This document shows positions 9,945 through 60,600 of a stretch of 64,000 nt of DNA, piece after piece (positions within the stretch are counted from its first letter, which is position 1; each line of letters starts with the position of its first letter). A program made the position numbers and the translations under genes. A model generated the notes under the pieces. It was not told where the DNA came from, searched no databases, and was given only the letters and a program-made list of their open reading frames with translations. The stretch comes from Sphaerolaimus hirsutus (Eukaryota > Nematoda > Chromadorea > Monhysterida > Sphaerolaimidae), in NCBI GenBank assembly GCA_964036195.1, contig OZ038458.1, positions 9,995,832 through 10,059,831 of the forward strand, read 5' to 3'.

Positions 9945-12900
9945 ATGTACGGCCAGTCGCAAAACCCCCAGCAACAACAACAGCAGTACAATGCCGTCGC
10001 ACCTGGCGGTCAACAGCAGCAGCAGCAGTATGGCGGGCTGCCGCGGCAACAACCGCATGTGGTCATGCAGGCGCCCGGGGCACAGCATGTCGCCAATGCT
10101 CCGCAGGTGACTGGTGGCGCTTTGTTTTTGCCTTTGTGATCTTTTTGCAAGTTCGCGGCGTGCGTCCATATGGCTGTTGTAGGGGCGAATTTCGGGCGGC
10201 TTGGTTGTCGCCGTTCACTGGGTTGCGAATACATCCTGTCCCCGCTCAAAAACTTGCTAGATCCCTATGCATATTCACATCTGAAACAAACAATTCCCCA
10301 TGTTTTGTCATGTGTAAGAAGGGACCCTCGTAAACACCTTCCCGGACAAGTTCACCACCCATTTTTTTATTTCACTTCGGTTGTAATATCTCCATCTATA
10401 AGGGTGTTATAAAGCTGAAACTTTGAATATATAAAGTTGTAACACCCCCTACTTTGCTTCAATGGGGGGAGGTGGGGCGACTCACTACAGGGTGGGTTGC
10501 CCTATATGCAACAATTTTTTTGGTGTCCCAAACAAGTTCACCACCCACTTGATTAGCTATACTTCGAGGGTCATATCTCCAGCTGTGAGGCTGGTATAAA
10601 GCTGAAATTTGGGGGATGTCTTGCCAACAACCCCCCTCACAATACACCAGTGGGGTGGCTGCCAGCGATCCACTACGGTATGCGTTACTGTATGTACAGT
10701 TGTTCATTTTTTTCAAAACAACCCAAATGTCCCAAACAAGTTTCCCACCCAGCTCCATTTTAAAAAATGTTGTGAGAAGATACCTAATATAAAATTGAGT
10801 CAGATTCGAACCCTAGTTCTGCTAATTAAATGTTTATCAGTAGGGCACGCACCCCGTCCCAAAAACAGCATAGCGAAAATTTCACATTAAACCAATTTTT
10901 TGTTTCACATTTAAAAAGTTGGTTTACAAAGTTCACTAGGGAAGGGTCCAAGGTTCAAAGTTACGTAAACAACATGACCTCTAAAATGCGTCCATAAGGA
11001 AATTTATTTGGGGTGAATATTATGATGTCATAATCACAACATTACAGGAACAAAATTTGACAAAATTTTTTCTTTTTCATTCACCCCAAATAAATTTCGT
11101 TATGCAGGCATTTTAGAGGTTATGTTGTTTACATAACTTTGAACCTTAGACCCTCCCCTAGTGAACTTTGTAAACCAACTTCTTAAGTATGCAACAAAAA
11201 ATTGGTTTTAAGTGAAATTTTCAGTCTGCCATTTATGGGACAGGGTGGGTGCCCTACTGAAAACTTTTTAATGAGCAGAACTAAGGTTCAAATCTGATTC
11301 AATTTTATATCAGGTTTGTTCTCACAACACTTTTTTATAATGCAGTTGGGCGGCGAACTTGTGTGGGAGACTTGAGTGGTTTGTAAAAAATGAACAAATT
11401 TATAAGCGGCGACCCATGCTGTAGTGGGTCGTTGGCGGCCACCCACTGGTGTATCGTGAGAGGGGGTTGTTTGCAAAGCAACCCCCAAATTACAGCTTTC
11501 TATCGCCCTCACAGCTGGAGATATGGCCATTGTAGTGTTGCTCATCAAGTGGGTGGTGAACTTGTTTGGGACACCGAAAAAGCCACAAGGGCGACCCACC
11601 CTGTAGTGAGTCGCCGCACCTCCCCCCATTGATTCGGAGTAGCAGGGTGTTAGGAATATATACCCACCAAATATTAGGTATATACGACTCCCATAGCCAG
11701 AGATATTGCATCTTAAGTGAAATAAAAAAATGGGTGGTGAACTTGTCCGGGAAGGTGTTTACTCAAATTAATCTAACCAATTCAATCCGATCACTGCATT
11801 TACTTCCCAGGGCTACTACCAGCAACCGGGCGTATCCAGCGCGTACATGCAGCCGATGGCCGGGCAGCAGACCGGGCCGGGTCTGCAGCAACAACAGCAA
11901 CACAGCTATCACCAGGCCGCGCCGCCCATGCCGCAGCAGCAGCAACAGCAGCCGCAGATGTCCTATGTGGGCTTGCCGCAGCAGCACATACAGAAGGGTT
12001 GGCTCTGGTTTGGTGATTTGTGAAGGGTCTAGGGGTGTTTTTTGAGTTGTCTGTTTGTGACGCGCAGGACCGGCACATGGTGCGGTCGGCGCTAGCAGCA
12101 CCTTTTCTCAGGTATGACGTTTTCCCGGTTTTTGTAAGATTCACGTAGATTCGTCTGGCGCTACTTTTACCTGTGCAGCAGGGGTCTCCTAGGGGGGGGG
12201 CTGGGGGGGGGGGGCTGCCCCCCCCCAAATCCGCCAGCTATCTATCTATCCCGGAGGCCGCTCAGCTATCTATCTATCCCGAGGCAAAATTTTTGGCTAC
12301 TACCCCCAAAGACCCCCCCCCCAAATCGCTCAGCTATCTATCTATCTGGAGTGGTTTTTGAGAAATTTTCCCCCAATTTTCGCTCAAAATCACTAATTTT
12401 CGCACCTTTTTATAGTTTTTCACCTTCAAAATCGTGCTCTCCAGCTATATGCATGGTTATATGCCTGTTTTTAGCCATTTTAAACCTACTTTTAGCCACT
12501 TTTAACCAATTACCAGCGATTTTTTCTCCTTTTAGCCTTCTATGCACTGAACAAGCCTATATATTTTGCCCCCGCGAGCCCCCCCCCAAGCCCCCCCCCC
12601 CAGCCCCCCCAGAAAAATTTTCCAGCTATCTACCCCTCGGGAGGGGCGATTTGCTATCTATCCAGCCCCCGCGAGGGCCAAAATCCTGGAGACCCCTGCT
12701 GTGCCGTGCAGCCGTCGAGCGGCCGCTCGTCGCAAATGGATCTTGGACGCCCGCATTCACAGATGTCTCAGCCCGTGGCTAGGTTATGCCGAGTCACTTA
12801 AATACTGTCATTTCGTTTTTCGATTTTTCCAACGTATCTCCACAGTCCGGCGACTCCCGCCAGCGAGGGCGTATTGACTGCAATTGGCGCCAGCGCGGCA

Positions 12901-22900: not shown

Positions 22901-25900
22901 CAGGGAACTACTTTTATTTTTGCGTTACCTGATTGCATGCAATCGGTAACGTAAAATTGTTGACGCTGTGTTTAGGACACAATACAGGTATTGATAAATA
23001 TATTAGCCATGATGAAAATTTGAGACTTGTACCATTATCCACTTTCATTTCACTCTGATTTACTGATGAAATTTTCCGTTGCCTATTCTCCGTCAAGCTG
23101 TAAGCCCCACTTCACAAAGACTCAAAAGTACATACTCTCAACTCCACAATACTCTTTGCAATCTTGCTGTGTTGCGAAATTGTTGCTGTTTCCATCGCAG
23201 CCTTTGTATTGGAAGGTGACACAGCGCTGGCTGATGCTGTCAAACTGCCACCTTGTCACTTTTGGTCCGCATTCACGCCCTTCATTTGAGCTCAGGGAAC
23301 ACGTGTGGGCTGTGCAATGGTTGATTTGATAAACCTCAATTATTTACTTCCATGTATAATAGTTGTATTTGCCTTAGGTACCTTGTGTAGGGCAACAGCC
23401 ATAGGTGGTCCCATCAAAGTGGCAGTAGAAATTTGGCGGACATGATCTGATTTCACCTGCCGAATTTTTGCAAGTGCTCAGAATTTTTTGCGCAAAAACG
23501 TGTCACTCGAAACTGAACTTGACCCACCTGTGCTGCCGGCACAAATCACATAGTGTCCACCTGTATCCTTCAACGGATTGCCGTGGACGCACTGCGGCTC
23601 CACCCTGGCATCCTTGCAAAAGTCTTGACACTTGCCATACTTGTCAAAATTGTTTGCATTGCCTTGACAGCCAGAGAATGTGAACGATTCACAGTTGCCG
23701 GTGGCTGCGTTGAACCACCAGCGAGATGTGTAAGAATTGCAGTTTCCAGGAGCTTGGGCCAGTTTGCAGACGAATTCTGGTTAACGAAGAATGTTGTTTG
23801 GCGGCCCACGCACTAGTGGACACTTGTGTGTCAACTGGTCTGTGTCAACTCAGATTTCCGCTTCACGTGTCGCAGAGCTTTATTCTAATGCACTGGCCTT
23901 AATAGTTATTTTTCAACATTGCCGCATGTGCGTTTGGAGATCCTCTGCGACAAGTGAAGCCGAAATCTGAGTTGATACAAACCAGTTGACACACATGTGT
24001 CAATTAGTGCACTTTGGAACGAACTGTCACACTCAATAATTTGCCTTTGTAAGCGTAAATACTAACGCGGTCTCGGGCAGCACAAGTTTCCTTTGCACTG
24101 GTGTGTTGACGGACATCGATTGCTGTTGCCGCCGCAGTTCACATTGCGCACGCCGCTCGAGTCCTTCAGCGGCAGACCCGCCGTGCACACGGCTGCATTT
24201 GCATTGCATTTTAAATAACGGCTTCAAAACAATCGCCATCCAATCTCTTCTATGGCGTCACACACACTAGTTGACATAGAGATTCGTGTCTAATTTTTGT
24301 TAATTATGTGATTTCAACTTTCCGATGTTTATAGAGAATGGTGAAATTTTATATACCGTATTTCCTCGAAATACCCCCCCCCCTCGAAATACCCCCCCCC
24401 TCGTTTGACCCCCCCCCCCCTCTCGAGACCACTATGAAACAATCACCCCCCCCCCTCGAAATACCCCCCCCCCAAATTGAGTGTAAAGAGAACGTACATG
24501 ACAAATACTGCAGTTTGTGTTCTGCGTAGTGCAGAACACACGTTAAAACAATGTCGGAATCATGTTAGAACAGTGTTTTTACAATCTACGTACTAATATT
24601 AGTCTACAGAACCTTATAATTGGCGGTTTTTGTTGCATTTTTCGACGTCTGCGTACGTTTCAGACGACAATTTCGTACTTGGTTTTCAAAAAATTTCTTG
24701 TGAAATAATAACCCCCCCCCCTCGAAATACCCCCCCCCTCGTTTAACCCCCCCCCCCCTCTCGGGACCACTATGAAACAATCACCCCCCGGGGGGTATTT
24801 CGAGGAAATACGGTAGGTAGTGACACTTAAATTTCTTTTTTTGTTAAATGTGATGTTTTGAAAAAATTGTGTTTTTTAGTTGACATTCAGTTGATATTTG
24901 TTTGCGATGTCAACTAGTGTGTGTGTGGGCCGTTTGTGACGCACTTCTGGAGCAGTACAGCTCGCAGTCGGTCTCGGACATGAAGTTGTTGAAATTGCCA
25001 GCCTGGCCAAGATAGGTGAATGGGCGGCACCGGGCCGACCCCTTGTCATAATAAAATCGCGAGTAAGTCTGCGACTCCGGACCTGGCGCGATGCCAACGT
25101 CATAGCCCAGGCCGTCTTGACGACCGAAAAAGTCATTATAATCGGCGGCGCCGTTTTCTGAGCACACGCTTTCCACGCTGGGGCAGCACAGGCTCTTGGT
25201 GCCCACCGCGGTGCAGTGGAAGCCGGCCGCGCTGCCGCACAGCGAGTTCGTGTCGCATGTTTGCGCGCCGCGCAGCGACAGGCCCGATGCTGGCGTGGAT
25301 AGTTCGGCGGACGGCGTGCCGCTGTACAGGGGTCTGCCGCGCTCGCATGCTGAGTGTGCGGAGGGTTGGTGTGGTGTGTGTGTGTGTGGCTATCGGTATT
25401 GAAATGCCAGTGTCATTTGAAGCCTATCCTCGAGCACTGACACGTAGGGTGTCAAATTTGGGGCTTATGTTTCCGTTTTCGGAAAGCCAAAATTTTCAAT
25501 TTCTAGCCACTAGGTAAACTTTTTTCCGTTCCATTTTTCCGGCTCATTTTCTATTTTCTGAAAATTTTTCTGTGTGTTTTTTCTGCCTCATTTTCCATTT
25601 TCTGTTTTTTTTTCGCTTTATTTTTTATTTTCTAGCTCAACCTTCCGTTTTCTATTGCATTCAGGTTTTGCAAAAAAGTTCTGCTTCACCGTTTTCGGCA
25701 AAACAAAATTTTGCAAATTTTTTCCATTTCCATGCAAATCTTTTTTCCTTTTTTTTGGCAAGCACAAAAAAATTTCCGTTTCTGTTTTCCACAAGTGCAA
25801 ATTTTCCTCTGCTTCCGCTTATGTTTTCCATAAGGAAATTGTTGACATCCTACTGACACGCACCCTGCAAGCAGTAGCTCTCGCAGTGCTCTCTCGTCTC

Positions 25901-28123
25901 AAAATTGTTCGCATTTCCGCCGCTGCCCCTGTAGGCGAACTGGGTGCACTCGCCCGTGACCGTGTTGTGATAGTAGCGCGTGATGGTGCCGCCGCCATTG
26001 GCGGAAAATGAACCAGCGTCCTGGGGTTGGATGCACGCCAGAGCTGCGAGCGCGTGTGGATTGAAATCGAGTTTTAAGTTACCTCTAGATTAAGTTGCAC
26101 TGGGGCGAAGTTATGGATAAACTTTCTGAAGTCATTGGACATTAAAATTTAGTTAACTTCTAGATTAAGTTGGGAATTAAGTTATGGATTGAATAATATA
26201 ACAAAATCATTGGAAATTATGACATAGTTCAATTCTGTAGATTAAGTTACAATGGAATTAATTTATGGATGTACTTTCTGAAATGGACATTGAAATTCAT
26301 TTTACCTCTGGATGGACAGCAGAACATGTTGTCAAAGTTGTAGCAGTCTAGGGGCAGTTCCAGAGCCAGTAAAATGCCCTGAAAATGTCAAATGTCATGC
26401 AAAGTGCCAAAAGTCATGTAAAATATTCGGTAAAATGGCAAACACACGTTTGCCATTTTACCGGGCATTTTACATGAATTTTAACACTTTGCATGACATT
26501 TGACATATTACAGGGCATACCACAGAGTCCGGGACTGGCACCTGGATCGCTGCAAATGCAGTCGTAGGTAGCAGGGCAGCCGTAATCAACCGTCATCGCG
26601 CAGTACAATATCACCTTGCCATCGGACCACCTCAACTTTGTTCTCTCCGCCCCAATAGGGCAGCCGCCGTAGTTGACGCACACCATGCCGTCTTTGGTTG
26701 GGAAGGGCGGCTGGTTGTTAGCGCAGCGGCACGTGCCGCCCGAACAGTGCGCGCCCGGCCACACGGCCGCACATTGCCTGTCCTTGGTGCAGCCCGCCTC
26801 GCCGGGGTTGATTCCTGCGTGGGTGTTTGATTGTCAGTAGCCGAACATTTTATTATCTAATGACCTAACATCTAATGATGGCAAGCGATAATTTTTATAT
26901 GCGAAAACATTTTCAGGATTTTGCCAGTATTTTCCATGTATTTTTTACTCAGCAATAAAAACGTTTTATAATCAATTTGTGGCAATCGAAAAATCATGAA
27001 TTCTAGAGTCATTTCGATAAATCACGGTTTATCCAGAAATTTCGTAAATGTTATTGGAAATGCGAGACTATTTTTCAACTCTAATAACGCCGTAATTTAA
27101 TTACTTATTTACCATTGCCGTTGCATAATGGATTTACCCTTGCACAACAAAAATTGCTTGAGTTATGTCGAATTTTTAATTGATTTTAAGTGATGAGTCG
27201 TCACGGCCACACGATTGTGCAGATCCAATTGTATCAGGCTGTAAACTAAGTTTCTTATATTTTTTTGCGATCTCATAGAAATGCACATTCCTGCATCCTA
27301 TTCTCTTGTATTTACATTGGCCGATTTTGATGGCCTTCGAGTATGTTGGGGTTTGGGGTCTGGGTTATGACCAACTGTTTTGGTTTGCTCGAATAATCCC
27401 CCAGTCCCGAGATAAGGGGTGTCTAAAAAAAGTGGTCATTTTGCACGGATGATCTGCACATTGACTTTGAAGCTTTATAACTCGGCCATTTCTGGGCCGA
27501 TTTGGATCTTACAACACTTAAAATGATCAGGACAACCTGCAGATTCAATTTTTGTGGTCGGATTAGTCATGTCTAGCTTCCGTACGCCGATTTGACCCGG
27601 TTTTTGAACACAGAACAAAAATAATTTTTTTGCATATGCTATCATATACATAAGACAAAAAGAATAAATCTGGCACAAAAATTATTTCAATATCTCTTTC
27701 CAATCAAAAGTTATAGCACTTTGAACTTTCGTCGCCCACTCATAAAATAACCACATGAAGAACAGTGAACATTTCTATGAGATCGCAAAAAAATATAAGA
27801 AACTTAGTTTATCCCCTAATAAATATATTTACTCGATTTTAGGCACTCCCAAAGACTGAATGCAAAAATTCTGACGTTACGAAAAAATCGAATTGCACAT
27901 TGTAAAATGATAAGATCTTCACGGCGCAACACTCACTCCTCCAGCAGTAGCCGTTTATGTCCACGTAACTCGACAGACAAGCGCATCTTTTGTTGCCAGC
28001 GCAGTAGCCGCCCGTGCCGCATGAAGTCGACTCTTCACATGGCTGATTTACTGGCGGCAGTTGGCTCAGTGCCAAGTGATTGGCTAGTAGAATTGTGAAA
28101 ATTGCAGCATTTGTGTTTAACAT
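19949..28123 (-). CDS. Secreted EB / lustrin / Kunitz multidomain protein
   Basis: Sixteen exons (28123-27937, 26814-26542, 26347-26306, 26043-25864, 25349-24945, 24192-24067, 23776-23528, 23456-23382, 23309-23136, 22643-22296, 21812-21701, 21635-21574, 21318-21115, 20649-20467, 20405-20311, 20254-19949) give 1006 residues with phases closing. A signal peptide (MLNTNAAIFTILLANHLALS) precedes two EB-type cysteine modules, then about ten lustrin-type repeats, each ending in CC, and five Kunitz domains (exons 4, 5, 7, 9, 10). The first two Kunitz domains lack the pair equivalent to BPTI C14-C38. The other three have six cysteines but N, G and A at P1. Proteins of this plan are typical of nematodes, as matrix or cuticle proteins or protease inhibitors. 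With no basic P1, trypsin inhibition is unlikely. I cannot name an orthologue. Confidence 0.9.
20745..20909. mobile_element. Partial TCGAAATCCCC / CGGTA MITE
   Basis: CTCGAAATCCCCC repeats end in TTTCGAGGAAATACGGTA. The left end is degraded. It lies between exons 13 and 14 of the Kunitz gene. Confidence 0.5.
21370..21556. mobile_element. TACCGTATTTCTTC MITE in Kunitz-gene intron 12
   Basis: The ends TACCGTATTTCTTCTAATAG and AAAATACGGTA enclose CCGTTCTATTGGAGG units. It makes up most of the 255-bp intron between exons 12 and 13. Confidence 0.7.
22092..22249. mobile_element. TA-flanked MITE, TACTCCAGCGACATTACACC ends
   Basis: The ends TACTCCAGCGACATTACACC and GATGTCGCTGGAGTA are inverted with TA on each side. 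A sister copy is at 63012-63198. It lies between exons 10 and 11 of the Kunitz gene. The TA duplication suggests a mariner-like source. Confidence 0.7.
23800..24015. mobile_element. GTTGACAC MITE between Kunitz exons 6 and 7
   Basis: The left end is GGCGGCCCACGCACTAGTGG. The inner arms contain ACTCAGATTTCCGCTTCACG and the inverted counterpart. The right end is eroded (GTCAATTAGTGCACTTTGG). Confidence 0.7.
24254..24931. mobile_element. CACACACTAGTTGAC MITE containing a nested element
   Basis: The outer ends GGCGTCACACACACTAGTTG and its near inverse enclose AT-rich arms like those at 15552-15737. A CTCGAAATACCCCC-type element (about 24356-24815) ending in GAAATACGGTA is inserted inside. It begins 13 bp inside the intron after Kunitz-gene exon 5. 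Confidence 0.65.
25445..25852. mobile_element. TAGGGTGTCAA element, 8-bp duplication, in Kunitz-gene intron 4
   Basis: The ends TAGGGTGTCAAATTT and TTGACATCCTA are inverted. Both flanks are CTGACACG (25437-25444 and 25853-25860). The interior is rich in TTTTCC and TTTTCTG units. The insertion point is only a few bases inside the donor of exon 4. It is related to 54847-56766. Confidence 0.8.
26348..26541 (-). mobile_element. MITE that is exactly one intron of the Kunitz gene
   Basis: Read on the minus strand, the intron runs from GTGCCAGTCCCGGACTCTG to GGAACTGCCCCTAG, and its two halves are inverted repeats (TGTCAAATGTCATGCAAAG and complement). Exon 2 ends in SDPG and exon 3 starts CYNFDNMFCCPS, completing a lustrin module, so removal must be exact. 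The same family is at 58150-58286, with diverged copies elsewhere. Confidence 0.85.
27244..27809. mobile_element. Mariner-like non-autonomous element
   Basis: Inverted repeats AACTAAGTTTCTTATATTTT and complement are flanked by TA (27242-27243 and 27810-27811). The interior from about 27320 to 27660 is clearly related to the element at 3629-4873. It lies in intron 1 of the Kunitz gene. No transposase frame is seen. Confidence 0.7.
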
Positions 28124-43400: not shown

Positions 43401-46400
43401 GTCAATTATGCGCTGTAAGTTGCGTAAAATTAGGGCATAAAATTAAAAAAATTTGCGCCAAAATTCATAACTTCTAGTACAATCAAAATAAACTGATGAG
43501 CTTTGGACACAAGCAACATCTGCATGTGCGCTTCCTTTGACTGAAATTACGACGCCATATCTTTATCCATTCACCTTTTCCTTCATCCATTATCCATTTT
43601 ACGCCCAAAAATCAATTTTTCGCCCGGTCTATTTTACGCCTGAGCTGTAATCGCAGCATTAGCGATAACTCAAGATTTAGAATGTTAACAAAATAGATAA
43701 AACACTAGAACACCTTTTTGCCATTCATCAAGAAATATACCTAATTCATACCTAGTTCATCAGTAGATTGTAACTATGGGGACGATACCATTTTTCCTAT
43801 TTATTACACGTTTTAAAAATTATTATTAGTTTTAAAAGTTTCAAACATACATTTGCATAGTAATGTTTGTAAAACATACCGAAAATAATGTCAGTCGATT
43901 TCTGAACAAAAAAAAATTAATTCGATACGCACACAAAATGCAAAAAAATTTAGCCCCTACGGGGTCTCGATCCCCGGACCTTAAGATTAAAAGTCTCACG
44001 CTCTACCAACTGAGCTACAGAGGCTGTTGGGTTCCGCCTTCCTATAGACCCAGAATAAACATGCATGTGGCGTCACGGTACCGAATATACACGCAGCAGA
44101 TGCTGTGAATGGACTTGGTTTGTTCCGAAATTTTGTAGCCATTTCTGGACTAACGATTGAACACACGAAAGCAAAAGTACCTATACACATGAAAGCCCAT
44201 ATCTTTTGTGTTTTTTTCTGATGAAAAATTTCAGCTGTATATTTATCTTGTATTCTTTTTATATTAGCGAACTTGTGTTTAAAATTATTGTATTTTATTT
44301 TGGGTTACAAATTTCCAGCCTCCAGCCCTGAAAGGGGACTGACCCCAGAATTTCCGAACTGACCAAGTTTATTTTCGAATGGTTATTAAACACATATTTA
44401 AATGTAAACGTATTTGGTATAAAAATACATATTTTCAAAAACAAACGTTGCATTCTACATCTCAGTTCAACAAAAACACTATACGAAACAAGAACCATTC
44501 ACCAAGGAAAAACATTACAACTCACATTCACTTCATCCACATACTGGGCCAATTCAGCGGACCTCTGTTTCAACTTGTTTCTCAACTGCTCATTTTCTGC
44601 GCGTCGCCCAGTTTGCGTGTCCAGTTGAGCGGTGGCGCGGCGTTCTAACGCTTTCACGGTGTCTTGCAGCATGTAGATCTGCGTTCGCGCGGGTCAAATG
44701 ATGGACAGCGGTCGTTTTTGGATTGATTTAAGGATGCGATATGGAGATTGGCTTACCCTTTCCCTGGCGTCTTTGAGCTCCTTCTCCAGGCCGGCTATTT
44801 GCCCCATGAACTGCGAGAGAAGTTGGAATGTTGCCAAGCTTTACATTTGGGACTTGACTTTACACTTTACAGGGTGCGGGAATGCTCCCTGAGGGTAATC
44901 TGAGGCGCTAATTCAAGCAGGTACTTGGAGCAAACACGGTATATAACACACCTTCTCCGCCCTCTCCCTCTCATCAGCCAGTTCCCTGTCCCTGTCCCTG
45001 CTCTGCGCCCTGAGCTGGTCGGCCTCCTCGCGCAGACTGGCGATCTCGGCCCTGGCCGCGCTGAAACTGGCCACCGTGCCGCCCGCCACCCCGCTGCTGC
45101 TCGACGCCAGACCCATCCTGTGCGAGTGGGCCTTGGTCGGCTATATTGTAAAGTGAGTGTATTGGATATTGTATCGCCAAAAGCGAGTTAACTATCCCTC
45201 CCAGTGCCAAAGCCAGATCCTGTAGAATGTCATGTGTCATGTAAAAGACCCTGTAAAGTGTCATGTGTATCCAAATCTTATTCTATAGTATTCAAAATAT
45301 TACGTTTTGTGTCCAAATCTTATGTTTTGTATCCAAATAACGTTTCTTACGTTTGGACATAATTATAAAAAACCTTTTAGGGACCCAACGTCATCGCTGA
45401 GAGACTCTTACTCTCACATCCTACATACCTGGGGACTTGGCAAAAGTCCAAAAAATGCAGAAAAATTAACTGGATGGTACCTCGGACATGTGGTGAGCGT
45501 TTTCACGATTACTAAACTCGCCATAGTGATTTTGGTTTGAATACAACAACATAAGATATGGGTTCTATCGAATAATATTTGGATACATGTGACATCTTAC
45601 AGGTTCTTCTACATGTCACTTGACATTTTACAGGATCTGTGACTGCCCCCAGGTTCATTTACCATCTGACCATTTCGCACATACGTGGCTCAATGGCACG
45701 CTAGTGATGTAAAAGCGCCATGGCGCGGTCACCAAAGTCCTGGCGCTTTTTACATCACTGGGCGTCGCTCACCTCAATTCGCTCAGTTCTTCCTTGAGTT
45801 TGTCTCGCTCAGCCTCGAAACTGTCCTCCAGCTCGGCCAGGGCCTTGCCCCTCTCTTCAGCCTCGTCGAGCGCTGCGGCTGCAGCTGTCGCTTGGTACTG
45901 CGAGCAGAGACGAGTAGAGTGGAGATTTATTTATTATCTGTGTTTACCGTATTTCTTCTAATAGAACAGCATACCTCCAATAGAAGGGCACCTCAAATAG
46001 AAGGACACCTGAAATAGAACGGCAGGTTTTGGCGCATTTTTGCGCTCGGTAAAACAGTAGAACGGCAGCCTCCAATAGAACGGCAGGTAAAAACGTTGAC
46101 GTGAAAAATAGAACGGCGCTCGTTTATAAGAAAGAAATACGGTACGTCACTCTTAGGTAAAGAATACATGAAGCTCGTAAAATGATAAATGTGAATTCAC
46201 GCTGGTACCGTCATGAACAATCGGCAATCGAAATCCACATTTTTTTTCTGAGCGTGGCGGCCATTGTAAAAATAATGACGTTTTTAAGATTGCCGTCATG
46301 GGCTCAATACACGTCATGTAAAAAAAATGCGACCGACAGCCATGATGGCCTGGGCGGCGTCGAACAGCGTGCGCAGGTGCTCCACGTTGTCCTCGTCCTC

Positions 46401-57600: not shown

Positions 57601-60600
57601 AAGTAGCCCCAGATGACGTTTCCGGGCCTACCTCGAAATTGTCATATTTTGGATTTGTCGACTTTTAGAAGTAGACGCCTCAATTATCAGTGGATCGGTC
57701 ACCGTAGGCACAAATCCCTACAATTGCTGTCAAAACTGTGCCCGTCAGCGTATATGTACGTGTATTTACATACATATACAGAGGTTTCTGGCACTGGCGC
57801 CGGCGCCAATGACACCTTGGCGTGGCGCCTACGAATGGCGCTATTCCGTCACTGTGTAGGCAAAATTTTAGGGGGGGGGGCGCCCCCCCCCCGCTCGCCG
57901 GGTTCCGTAAACAAGCAGCCCCCCCCCCCGCTCAAAAATCCTGGATACGTCCCTGACATTTACAATTGTGAATTTACACGAACTTTCGCCCGCTGCAGGC
58001 CGCCAATTCAGATAGAATACGTGGATACTGCCGTGAAGTGGCAGCGAGAAAGCGATCGCCGAGCAGTGAATGTAAATTTCTCGGCGTGAAATTGAACAGG
58101 GGAGTGTCGGCGCATCACAATCGCGCCCTTTTTGATGTGATATCATCTGGTGCCAGTTCCAGACCCTGTAAAATGCCCCGTAAAATGACAAATGTCATGC
58201 AAAGTGTCAAAAGTGATGTAAAATACATGACTTTTGACACTGCATGACATTTGACATTTTACGGGGCATTTTACAGGGTCTGGGAGTGCCCCCTGGCTTC
58301 ACTGAAGCTGTCTATTCGTGTCCGGTGTGCAGCAAAAAATTCGAAAGCAAAACGTTCGACTGCGATCATAAAATTGTTGACGGCTCATCCGCACGCGTGG
58401 ATGCCTCTTCTCCCGGTGAACAAGCGCGGGATAAAAGGAGGGTTGGTTTATTTTTTCTTATGCGTGAGCACACATTTCTGCACCCCACAATCTCTATTTT
58501 TGTCATGTACGTTACGAGAGTGCATAGACCGCTACAAATGACCAAATGTGGACCAATTTTCATACATATAGGTATAAAGTTGTTCTTGAGAAGTAAACAT
58601 TGGCGCCAGCGCCAATCATGCCATGGCGCGGCGCCTACAAATGGCGCCAGCGCCATAAATCCATTCCGCTACCGTAGGGGCCAGATTTTAGGGGGGGCGC
58701 CCCCCCCCTGCCCCCTGTTCGACCGGCTCAGTATACAATCCGCACCCCCTCCCAACGCCTTGCGGAACTGACCCCAGGGGCCAGTCCCGCAAGTTGACAA
58801 GTACTTTACTCTTGACTCTTTACTTTACCCTTGACTTTGCTCTAAACTTTTAAATTGACTCTTGACTTTGCCACTTGCGGAGCCAGCACCAGAGTCAAAT
58901 CAAAAGTCAAGAGCAAAGTCAGTAGTAAAGTAAAGAGTCAAGAGTAAAGTACTTGTCAACTTGTACTGACCCCATCTCAAGATCATTTCAAAGCCTTTGC
59001 ATTTTCAGAAGGTCGTCGAAAGGCAGCCGGGACAATTTGCATGTACCCTGTGCAGCCGAACTTATGCAAGACGTGAAAAATTGTTAAACCACATGAGCAA
59101 AGTGCACAACATCGATCCGGGTGTACGTTACTTTATTTTTACTTGCATTTGACTTTTATGGTTCGCGTCGAGTAAACACAAATTGAATTGAATCGAATCC
59201 ATACGAAACAGGTGCGTGTATCTAATAATGGGATGGCATTTGTGGAGCGCTGAATTCCCTATTTGTATTTTAAACCGCGTACCGCATGCTATGCATTTTT
59301 CTGAACACTCCCTTACGCTTTGTTACGCTTTCATGGCCATAAATACCCGGGTGCCGAGAAAGCGTAAAACGACACAAAACGTTTGACCTTGCTTTTGAAT
59401 AAGTATAAAATGATAACTGTATGCGTGCTTCTTGATTTTGCCAATGCTGGTTCTGTTGAAAGATAATGATTGGTGCCAAAATTCGGTACTCTACGCGGAT
59501 TTTTTTAGTAATGCGGCCTAATGTTTTTCCGATGCATAATTACAAATCTGCGAATTAGAAATTTATCAAAAAGAAACGTGTTTAACAATAAAAATTCTAG
59601 CCTAAATGCAAATTTCACGAAGACTGAGGCTCTCTGTGCATGTTTACCCGCTGTGCATGTAGACCCTAATCTTCACACAAAATCGCTCATTTTCATACCA
59701 TTTTATACATTTTCACCTTCAAAATCACTAGTTCATGTGTTTTATTGTCTATTGTCAGCTATTTCTTGTAGTATATGTGCTTATATACACATTTTTAGTA
59801 ATTTTTCACCTACTTTTAGCGATTTTTCTACCTTTTTTCCTCATTATGAAAAAGCCTATACGATGAACCCCCACGAACCCCCAACCCCCCCAAAAATTTT
59901 TTTATAGCTATCTATCCCTCCAGAGGAGCGATTAGCCATCTATCCAACCCCCTGGAGGGTCAAAGTCTTGAATCCTCCTGATATGCACAGCGGGTAAACA
60001 TGCACAGAGGCACATGCCCGAGCAAGAATATCCTTGTTTTGCATATTAAACATGTTATACCGTATTTACATGAAAAATCCCCACCTTCAATAACCCCCCC
60101 CCCCTGTTAGACGAGTGAGGAAAAATAAATCCCCCCTCGAAAAATTCCACCAATAGGCATATAATAAATTATGTGTGTGTAATTTGAACAAAAATGACAT
60201 CTTGTGTTGTTAATTAATCACATTTCATGAAATGGGATCATACAAAGATGCTTTAAAAAATTTAACAAAAAAATTCCCCCCCCCTTGTATAATTCCCCCT
60301 TGAATAGTCCCCCACAAAAAAATCTGGCGAAACAATAATTCCACGGGGCAATTATTCGAGTGAATACGGTAAATTGAAAAGATTACCCGTGGAAGTTCCA
60401 CGATGGAACCAAAAATTCTCAGACGCTTTTATCGAAATTTCAATGCGTGCGTGTATATGATTGTGTCATTGTTAGTCTGCTTGGATAGTGCTTGGAAATA
60501 TTTTATAAATGCGTTTAAGATGAAAACAATGCTCAACAGCAAGGTCACGTTGTTAAATTTTTTACGCTTACGCTTTATTTTACGCTTTCCTCGGTATTTT

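What the first reader, a model, noticed from the sequence alone, without database searches (positions are those of the whole stretch)
26348..26541. A MITE whose own ends are the donor and acceptor of an intron
Exon 2 of the secreted Kunitz gene stops at the first base of an inverted-repeat element and exon 3 starts right after its last base. The GT is in GTGCCAGTCCC and the AG in CTGCCCCTAG, both parts of the element's terminal repeat. The lustrin module reads through only if exactly this 194 bp is removed. The intron is the transposon, as in introners described in some algae, fungi and a few animals.
Basis: partly seen in the sequence, partly recalled or inferred. Interest (0 to 1): 0.88.

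Follow-up and report, generated by a model that had tools for sequence, protein, structure and literature searches.

The report
Transposon that becomes introns in genes
A small hairpin transposon is present in very many copies in this animal's genome, and where it lies in genes it looks like a ready-made intron, in some cases with an end that ordinary introns do not have.

Summary
Window 26348-26541 (- strand) is a complete copy of a hairpin MITE and, by reading frame, an intron of a Kunitz gene: exact removal gives an open frame of 367 aa, retention gives stops. The 348-Mb genome has 1,846 exact donor ends and 2,383 exact acceptor ends, 0 in reversed-pattern controls. The ends differ (GTGCC, GGGGC) and pair only with each other in 32 of 32 position pairs. 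Of 71 held-out loci, 22 score strongly coding in sense and 0 in antisense. At 14 of 29 loci tested a Pfam match spans the spliced junction.

One correction: the acceptor AG comes from a 3-bp CWG target-site duplication, the mark of NuwaI (PIF/Harbinger-related) transposons, not from the terminal repeat. Consequence: insertions at CTG leave no AG. Such copies interrupt conserved exons, including the only CNOT9-like gene found, and would need a TG 3' splice site, a neighbouring AG or another route. The genome also has a second, divergent U2AF1. No RNA data were available. It is an introner of a new variant; its GT-TG class is the surprising, unproven part.

The parts
26351..26541 (-). Introner element proper (191 bp), GTGCC...GCCCC, hairpin MITE; its 5' end supplies the GT donor
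26542..26544 (-). Target-site duplication, exon copy (CAG on the - strand); last three bases of exon 2
26348..26350 (-). Target-site duplication, intron copy (TAG on the - strand); supplies the acceptor AG
26448..26509 (-). Inner hairpin arm, 5' in the transcript
26382..26443 (-). Inner hairpin arm, 3' in the transcript
27937..28123 (-). Predicted exon 1 of the host Kunitz/EB gene (borders chosen by eye on GT/AG and frame)
26542..26814 (-). Predicted exon 2, upstream of the introner (phase 1 end)
26306..26347 (-). Predicted exon 3 (42 nt), downstream of the introner
25864..26043 (-). Predicted exon 4, Kunitz domain
58150..58292 (+). Second copy of the family in the window, CTG on both sides (58147-58149 and 58293-58295): a candidate GT-TG intron; one joined sense frame is open and looks zinc-finger-like by eye

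Best explanation
An introner: a non-autonomous DNA transposon of NuwaI type (PHIS superfamily, PIF/Harbinger-related) that inserts at CWG and duplicates it. SHOWN by sequence: CWG target and 3-bp duplication, asymmetric ends, copies within coding exons in sense, frame and protein domains restored by removing the element plus one CWG. INFERRED: one terminal repeat has departed from the NuwaI-like GGG start (GGGGC) to GTGCC, so that exon CWG followed by GTGCC reads as a 5' splice site; the other end keeps CCCC followed by the duplicated CWG. At a CAG target this gives GT...CAG, a standard intron. At a CTG target it gives GT...CTG; I think the spliceosome cuts there too, helped by the hairpin that holds both ends together, perhaps less efficiently until the CTG mutates to CAG. 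The mRNA length does not change, because one CWG stays in the exon. The confidence given is for the introner; for the TG step alone I would say about 0.4.
For: Exact 16-mer donor end 1,846 hits, acceptor end 2,383, reversed-pattern controls 0. Ends pair donor with acceptor in 32 of 32 pairs within 420 bp. CWG duplication: of 30 pairs CAG/CAG 15, CTG/CTG 12, CTG/CAG 3, CAG/CTG 0, Fisher p = 1e-5. Orientation: codon model trained on 18 loci; of 71 others 22 score >= 8 in sense and above antisense, 0 the reverse; sense exceeds antisense in 53 of 71 (L014 and L022 among the 22 are copies of one gene). In 21 of those 22 exact removal scores above removal shifted by 1 or 2 bases; over all 71 in 40. 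Pfam matches span the junction at 14 of 29 loci given to Pfam, 12 over Pfam's own cut-off: 7tm_1, ABC_tran, Pkinase, Urocanase; RRM_1, Oscp1, Tmemb_cc2 (the last below cut-off); Srx, E1_dh, Xan_ur_permease, Rcd1, a second Oscp1 site, FYVE_2 (below cut-off), Glyco_transf_92. A paralogue of the E1_dh gene is uninterrupted at the site. NuwaI: CWG duplications, TIRs usually starting GGG and 12-61 bp long, animals only (PMC4482050, passages and the NuwaI section).
Against: No RNA evidence. The 29 loci for Pfam were picked by eye, not at random. The autonomous partner was not found: 163 DDE_Tnp_4 matches (150 of 306 candidates scored); of the listed ones, the three within the range of the end lists on C1 have no exact family end within 50 kb, and two fetched pieces hold none of four family words. 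Many copies are not shown to be coding: 5 of 25 analysed in the sample taken without regard to context. One of the 18 training loci (L006) itself scores negative, and three of the 22 sense loci also score above 8 in antisense, though lower (L015, L034, L060). Mixed duplications do not all point one way: CTG/CAG 3 and CAG/CTG 3 in the fetched loci. For TG-ending coding loci the first downstream AG is in frame in 7 of 11, against 11 of 29 for AG-ending ones (p = 0.17) and one third by chance (p = 0.04): weak support for a rival. The locus scans required GT, so the GT conservation is not independent.
Confidence: 0.88

Rival explanations
1. CTG copies are spliced at a nearby AG, with loss or gain of a few codons, so that no TG 3' splice site exists (the introner reading itself stands).
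For: All 11 TG-ending coding loci have AGs downstream; the first is in frame in 7 of 11, more than the one third expected by chance (p = 0.04) though not clearly more than in AG-ending loci (11 of 29, p = 0.17). In L007 it lies only 3 nt away. All 11 carry an AG 19 nt upstream. Human TG sites work only beside an AG within 28 nt (PMC2374985, one section read).
Against: The AG 19 nt upstream breaks the frame in all 11; further upstream AGs are in frame only in L007 (30 nt) and L081 (45 nt). In-frame downstream AGs would delete 5 codons in the Rcd1 match, 6 in Oscp1, 9 to 20 in L078, L098, L023 and L095. In L012, L065, L094 and L097 the first downstream AG is out of frame.
Confidence: 0.27
2. The copies, or at least those with CTG on both sides, are cut from mRNA by SOS splicing: the hairpin is recognised, the element is cut out without the spliceosome and RTCB joins the ends.
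For: Near-perfect hairpin (z = -16.7 for the window copy); CTG copies lack an AG at the border; SOS splicing of transposons from animal mRNAs is described in a review (passages read, PMC13247085). The original paper is not held and its worm data are recalled.
Against: A hairpin has no direction, so antisense exonic copies should be as frequent as sense ones; 22 strong sense and 0 strong antisense of 71. One end has a GT, and the 32 pairs examined are all donor with acceptor.
Confidence: 0.1
3. The elements are removed from DNA in the soma by precise excision, and the assembly comes from germline DNA.
For: Precise repair of excision sites is reported for mPing, a related type (title and start of abstract seen in a listing, PMC4561436); one CWG would stay, as the frames require.
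Against: Predicts no orientation to the gene and no asymmetric GT end.
Confidence: 0.03
4. The MITE landed inside older introns, or the genes are pseudogenes or heterozygous insertions, and the coincidence with exon borders is accidental.
For: Some copies are not in exons or are undecided (for instance L086; L093 and L099).
Against: Both element ends coincide with frame and domain continuity at many unrelated genes; the only CNOT9-like match is the interrupted one; coding CTG/CTG copies diverge from the consensus about as much as coding CAG/CAG copies, mean 6.6% (n = 9) and 6.1% (n = 13), so they are not all fresh insertions.
Confidence: 0.04

Closest known systems
Introners (Gozashti et al. 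2022, PMC9860276; parts 1-3 of 7 read, plus passages)
   Same: Repeated family whose ends coincide with intron borders, TIRs and TSD, insertion into exons without change of mRNA length. 'Carries the 5' splice site, takes the 3' splice site from the TSD' is described there for Chrysochromulina.
   Different: That Chrysochromulina family has 4-bp TSDs and no TIRs. The survey found introners in only two animal groups. Here the TSD is CWG, so CTG targets give no AG.
NuwaI transposons of the PHIS superfamily (PMC4482050; passages and NuwaI section)
   Same: CWG duplications, GGG at the unmodified end, TIR length in range, animal host.
   Different: No role as introns is mentioned in what I read; here one TIR begins GTG and no transposase was linked.
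Non-canonical introns of Fritillaria borealis (PMC13326754; abstract, introduction, one discussion section)
   Same: Animal with many introns outside the GT-AG rule, discussed there with introner transposons and with duplicated, divergent U2AF subunits; this genome has two distinct U2AF1 loci.
   Different: Tunicate with fewer than 10% GT-AG introns; here the other introns of the window gene are modelled as GT-AG and only the 3' end of some introner copies departs.
TG 3' splice sites in human genes (Szafranski 2007, PMC2374985; one-sentence abstract and one section)
   Same: GT-TG use in U2 introns.
   Different: There only as alternatives beside an AG within 28 nt; here they would be the frame-keeping site.
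Nonconventional introns of Euglena (PMC11170887; passages)
   Same: Ends brought together by base pairing, proposed transposon origin.
   Different: Those lack GT/AG at one or both ends and are presumed spliceosome-independent; here a GT end and a fixed orientation to the gene are kept.

Membership tests
Introner | Many introns share sequence that ends at the splice borders | tested here: met
   30-copy alignment and end tables, 32 of 32 end pairs
Introner | Insertion into coding exons with frame kept after removal | tested here: met
Introner | Signs of DNA transposition (TIR and/or TSD) | tested here: met
   hairpin TIRs, CWG TSD
Introner | Splicing shown in RNA | not testable with these tools
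   no RNA reads held
Introner | Intron absent in relatives (gain) | tested here: inconclusive
   one paralogue without it in the same genome; no related species held
NuwaI (PHIS) | 5'-CWG-3' target-site duplication | tested here: met
   27 of 30 paired ends carry the same CWG on both sides, 3 mixed; those pairs come from patterns that require CWG; without that condition on both sides 49 of 82 loci have CAG/CAG or CTG/CTG
NuwaI (PHIS) | TIR usually starting GGG, 12-61 bp | tested here: met
   acceptor end GGGGCAGTCCCAGACC; the donor end is GTGCC, so met at one end only
NuwaI (PHIS) | DDE transposase and Myb/SANT protein in an autonomous element that shares the TIRs | tested here: inconclusive
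   DDE_Tnp_4 matches present, not linked to these ends; Myb/SANT not tested
SOS-splicing substrate | Removal driven by inverted repeats regardless of direction (direction-blindness is my inference) | tested here: not met
   22 strong sense, 0 strong antisense of 71
Canonical GT-AG intron | AG at the 3' end | tested here: inconclusive
   met in the window copy and in 29 of 40 coding loci; not met in 11 of 40, which end TG; 5 of these 11 (L094, L095, L097, L098, L100) were fetched because of their CTG flanks, so the ratio is not a frequency

The most novel reading that the evidence does not exclude
In this animal a transposon supplies introns on a large scale whose 3' end is whatever CWG it hit, so that a large share of them are GT-TG introns spliced constitutively. 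The spliceosome here reads CWG as a full 3' splice site, possibly through the second, divergent U2AF1, so transposon and splicing machinery have adapted to each other.
Probability: 0.4. Interest if true: 0.93.

Novelty: new variant of a known kind. Interest (0 to 1): 0.82.

Why it matters
Introners are a leading explanation for bursts of intron gain, yet the 2022 survey found them in only two animal groups. Here an animal genome carries one family with some two thousand exact ends of each kind. Its transposon group can be named by a hallmark (CWG), one end differs from the group's usual start in a way that makes a splice donor, and the target site supplies the acceptor. Because W is A or T, the same transposon makes matched sets of GT-AG and, it seems, GT-TG introns in one genome. 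That makes an old question directly testable: how far the spliceosome depends on the AG, and whether a transposon can change that rule.

Tried and rejected
Longest open frame alone was too weak, because exons are short and GC-rich sequence is open in many frames: exact removal was best in 22 of 52 loci. It was replaced by the codon model and by Pfam. A first codon model trained on long ORFs was dropped because its training set mixes sense and antisense frames. I first took the AG as part of the terminal repeat; the flank tables rejected that.

Autonomous partner: six facing end pairs 0.45-9 kb apart on C1, about what chance would give by a rough estimate of mine that no call computed. The DDE_Tnp_4 matches look like a Harbinger-type family; in L101 I see two short GT-AG introns by eye.

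Host: the mitochondrial contig uses code 5 (AGA=Ser, ATA=Met, AAA=Lys by conserved positions judged by eye), which by recalled code tables excludes tunicates, echinoderms and flatworms. One host gene matches the receptor family Srx (nematode character of the family recalled), but nematode SL1 (recalled 22-mer, up to 1 mismatch) has 0 hits. I leave the host as an invertebrate, perhaps a nematode outside the SL1 clades.

Searches for print on introners in nematodes or other animals: (listings; passages of PMC9169325, PMC12235515, PMC10597677 read). I saw no paper on this family there. That is no proof of absence, since most subscription papers are not held.

Full report
What is there. The stretch 26348-26541 on the - strand is a complete copy of a hairpin element and, by reading frame, an intron. 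Exon 2 ends ...GATCCAG, then GTGCCAGTCCC...GGAACTGCCCC+TAG, then exon 3 ACTGCTAC. Joining exons 28123-27937, 26814-26542, 26347-26306, 26043-25864 and the start of a fifth gives one open frame of 367 aa (cut off by me inside exon 5) with an EB module and two Kunitz stretches; keeping the 194 nt brings two stops. The other three introns of that gene are modelled with GT and AG, borders chosen by eye.

The family. A whole-genome search with 211 bp scored 40 of 4,452 first-look candidates and reported matches at 40 places, each on both strands. The exact 16-base donor end GTGCCAGTCCCAGACC occurs 1,846 times and the exact acceptor end GGGGCAGTCCCAGACC 2,383 times; the reversed patterns occur 0 times. 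A 31-mer with up to 3 mismatches gave 5,168, but three mismatches can also admit the other end, so that number may mix ends. I estimate a few thousand elements; this is inference. The consensus of 73 copies of 150-205 bp is a 191-bp near-palindrome, and the window copy folds at -112.8 kcal/mol, z = -16.7.

Two different ends. The terminal repeats differ at positions 2 and 4: GTGCC at one end, GGGGC at the other. From printed positions on one chromosome, 32 of 32 facing end pairs within 420 bp are donor with acceptor, none donor-donor or acceptor-acceptor (100 donor rows and 94 of 100 acceptor rows used). So in these pairs one end can serve as a donor and the other is pyrimidine-rich.

The duplication. 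1,572 of 1,846 exact donor ends follow CWG and 1,721 of 2,383 exact acceptor ends are followed by CWG. In the 100 rows printed for each, the left side is CAG 52, CTG 48 and the right side CAG 59, CTG 41; for 30 pairs both sides are known: CAG/CAG 15, CTG/CTG 12, CTG/CAG 3, CAG/CTG 0, p = 1e-5. In 82 distinct fetched loci, which include samples chosen for an AG flank, CAG/CAG 39, CTG/CTG 10, CTG/CAG 3, CAG/CTG 3, others 27. So the target is CWG and is duplicated, and the intron's last three bases are the duplication. CWG duplications with TIRs usually beginning GGG mark NuwaI transposons, reported only from animals (PMC4482050). The GTG end is then a departure in the place where a 5' splice site is needed; this is inference.

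Exonic copies. Removing the element plus one CWG restores Pfam matches across the junction at 14 of the 29 loci whose joined proteins I gave to Pfam (10, 9 real ones, 10; picked by eye): 7tm_1 (L016), ABC_tran (L026), Pkinase (L056), Urocanase (L058); RRM_1 (L023), Oscp1 (L081), Tmemb_cc2 (L028); Srx (L095), E1_dh (L097), Xan_ur_permease (L098), Rcd1 (L100), Oscp1 (L082), FYVE_2 (L025), Glyco_transf_92 (L018). Tmemb_cc2 and FYVE_2 are below Pfam's own cut-off; a VWD match at L006 also spans the junction but is weak (E = 0.007). The codon model trained on 18 loci was applied to 71 others: 22 score at least 8 in sense and above antisense, none the reverse; means are 0.8 for exact sense, -7.4 antisense, -7.1 and -8.8 for removal shifted by one and two bases; exact removal is the best of the three in 40 of 71 and in 21 of the 22. 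Two genes hold hints of history: the Oscp1-like gene has two copies about 0.8 kb apart (L081, L082), and a paralogue of the E1_dh gene is uninterrupted over query residues 2-70 at 45% identity.

How common in exons. In the sample taken by exact donor end without regard to context (L063-L092, first 5 Mb of one chromosome), 25 of 30 loci could be analysed (3 repeated earlier loci, 2 had no acceptor end) and 5 are clearly coding. The rest lie elsewhere or are undecided. In the sample of best matches to the window copy 12 of 21 held-out loci pass the codon threshold and 9 more were training loci.

The surprise: CTG copies. If the target is CTG the intron ends in TG. Of the 12 CTG/CTG pairs, 11 were read. 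Five have a Pfam match across the junction (L081, L095, L097, L098, L100), one is a near-copy of L095 (L096), two more pass the codon test (L078, L094), and three are not coding or undecided (L086, L093, L099). All eight coding ones are sense. Outside that list L023 (RRM_1) and L007 and L065 (codon test) also carry CTG/CTG. The protein search with the L100 sequence finds only the two exons that flank the element, so the one CNOT9-like gene found is interrupted (the name CNOT9 is recalled; Pfam says Rcd1); read-through shifts its frame. The AG 19 nt before the junction would break the frame in all 11 TG-ending coding loci; the first downstream AG is in frame in 7 of 11, but would delete from 1 to 20 codons. 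As a control, it is in frame in 11 of 29 AG-ending coding loci (p = 0.17 between the two; p = 0.04 for 7 of 11 against one third), which leaves room for the neighbouring-AG rival. Coding CTG/CTG copies are about as diverged from the consensus as coding CAG/CAG copies, 6.6% (n = 9) and 6.1% (n = 13). In the first 30 loci, 18 of the 21 that I count as coding have an AG at the right end and 3 do not (L007, L012, L023); five of seven with CTG on the exon side have AG on the intron side, which fits later repair of the acceptor, while L012 goes the other way (my count).

Mechanism. Sense-only orientation and the GT end point to the spliceosome; SOS splicing, DNA excision and Euglena-type removal do not, to my understanding, predict a direction. 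TG acceptors in human genes were found only beside an AG (PMC2374985). Recalled, not read: a 1993 report that C. elegans splicing tolerates a missing AG. In Fritillaria, non-GT-AG introns go with duplicated, divergent U2AF (PMC13326754). This is suggestive only; I recall that U2AF1 copies occur in other animals too.

Verdict. It is a new variant of a known kind: a NuwaI-type introner in an animal that takes its acceptor from the target site. The GT-TG class is the part that would surprise a specialist, and it awaits RNA.

Noticed in passing
window 58147-58295: Second full copy of the family in the window, CTG on both sides, + strand; the joined sense frame is open and looks like a zinc-finger protein by eye (codon score 0.3 sense, -12.0 antisense): a candidate GT-TG intron.
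   Followed up: partly
window about 45600-45650: Acceptor-like end of the same family (TTTTACAGGATCTGTGACTGCCCCCAG) with no donor end seen in the 320 bases printed; probably a remnant.
   Followed up: no
window 24360-24830: C-rich repeats built from TCGAAATACCCCCC, with CCGTATTTCCTCGAAATA at one side and its reverse complement at the other (by eye).
   Followed up: no
window 10330-11762: Large nested inverted repeats (257-nt arms at 87% plus outer arms), another hairpin element; the search for arms of 45 nt or more listed 23 inverted-repeat pairs in the window.
   Followed up: no
window 43952-44024: tRNA gene on the - strand (Rfam).
   Followed up: no
G000 C14:3032343-3037998, C720:101293-108657, C16:15183258-15191469: U2AF1-like exons at two distinct loci (C720 nearly identical to C14), the C16 one divergent in two of four stretches; may bear on TG acceptors.
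   Followed up: partly
L081 and L082 (C1:3592147 and 3592982): Two copies of the element interrupt the same Oscp1-like gene, one with CTG and one with CAG duplications.
   Followed up: yes
L101, L102 and the places: 163 matches to the Harbinger-type DDE_Tnp_4 transposase; L101 shows two short introns by eye; terminal repeats not determined.
   Followed up: partly
L062 (G000 C762, first 10 kb of 14,754): Mitochondrial contig with code 5 and an unusual gene order: nad2 and nad1 on one strand; cox1, atp6, cox3, cytb, cox2, nad3 on the other (gene names by eye).
   Followed up: partly
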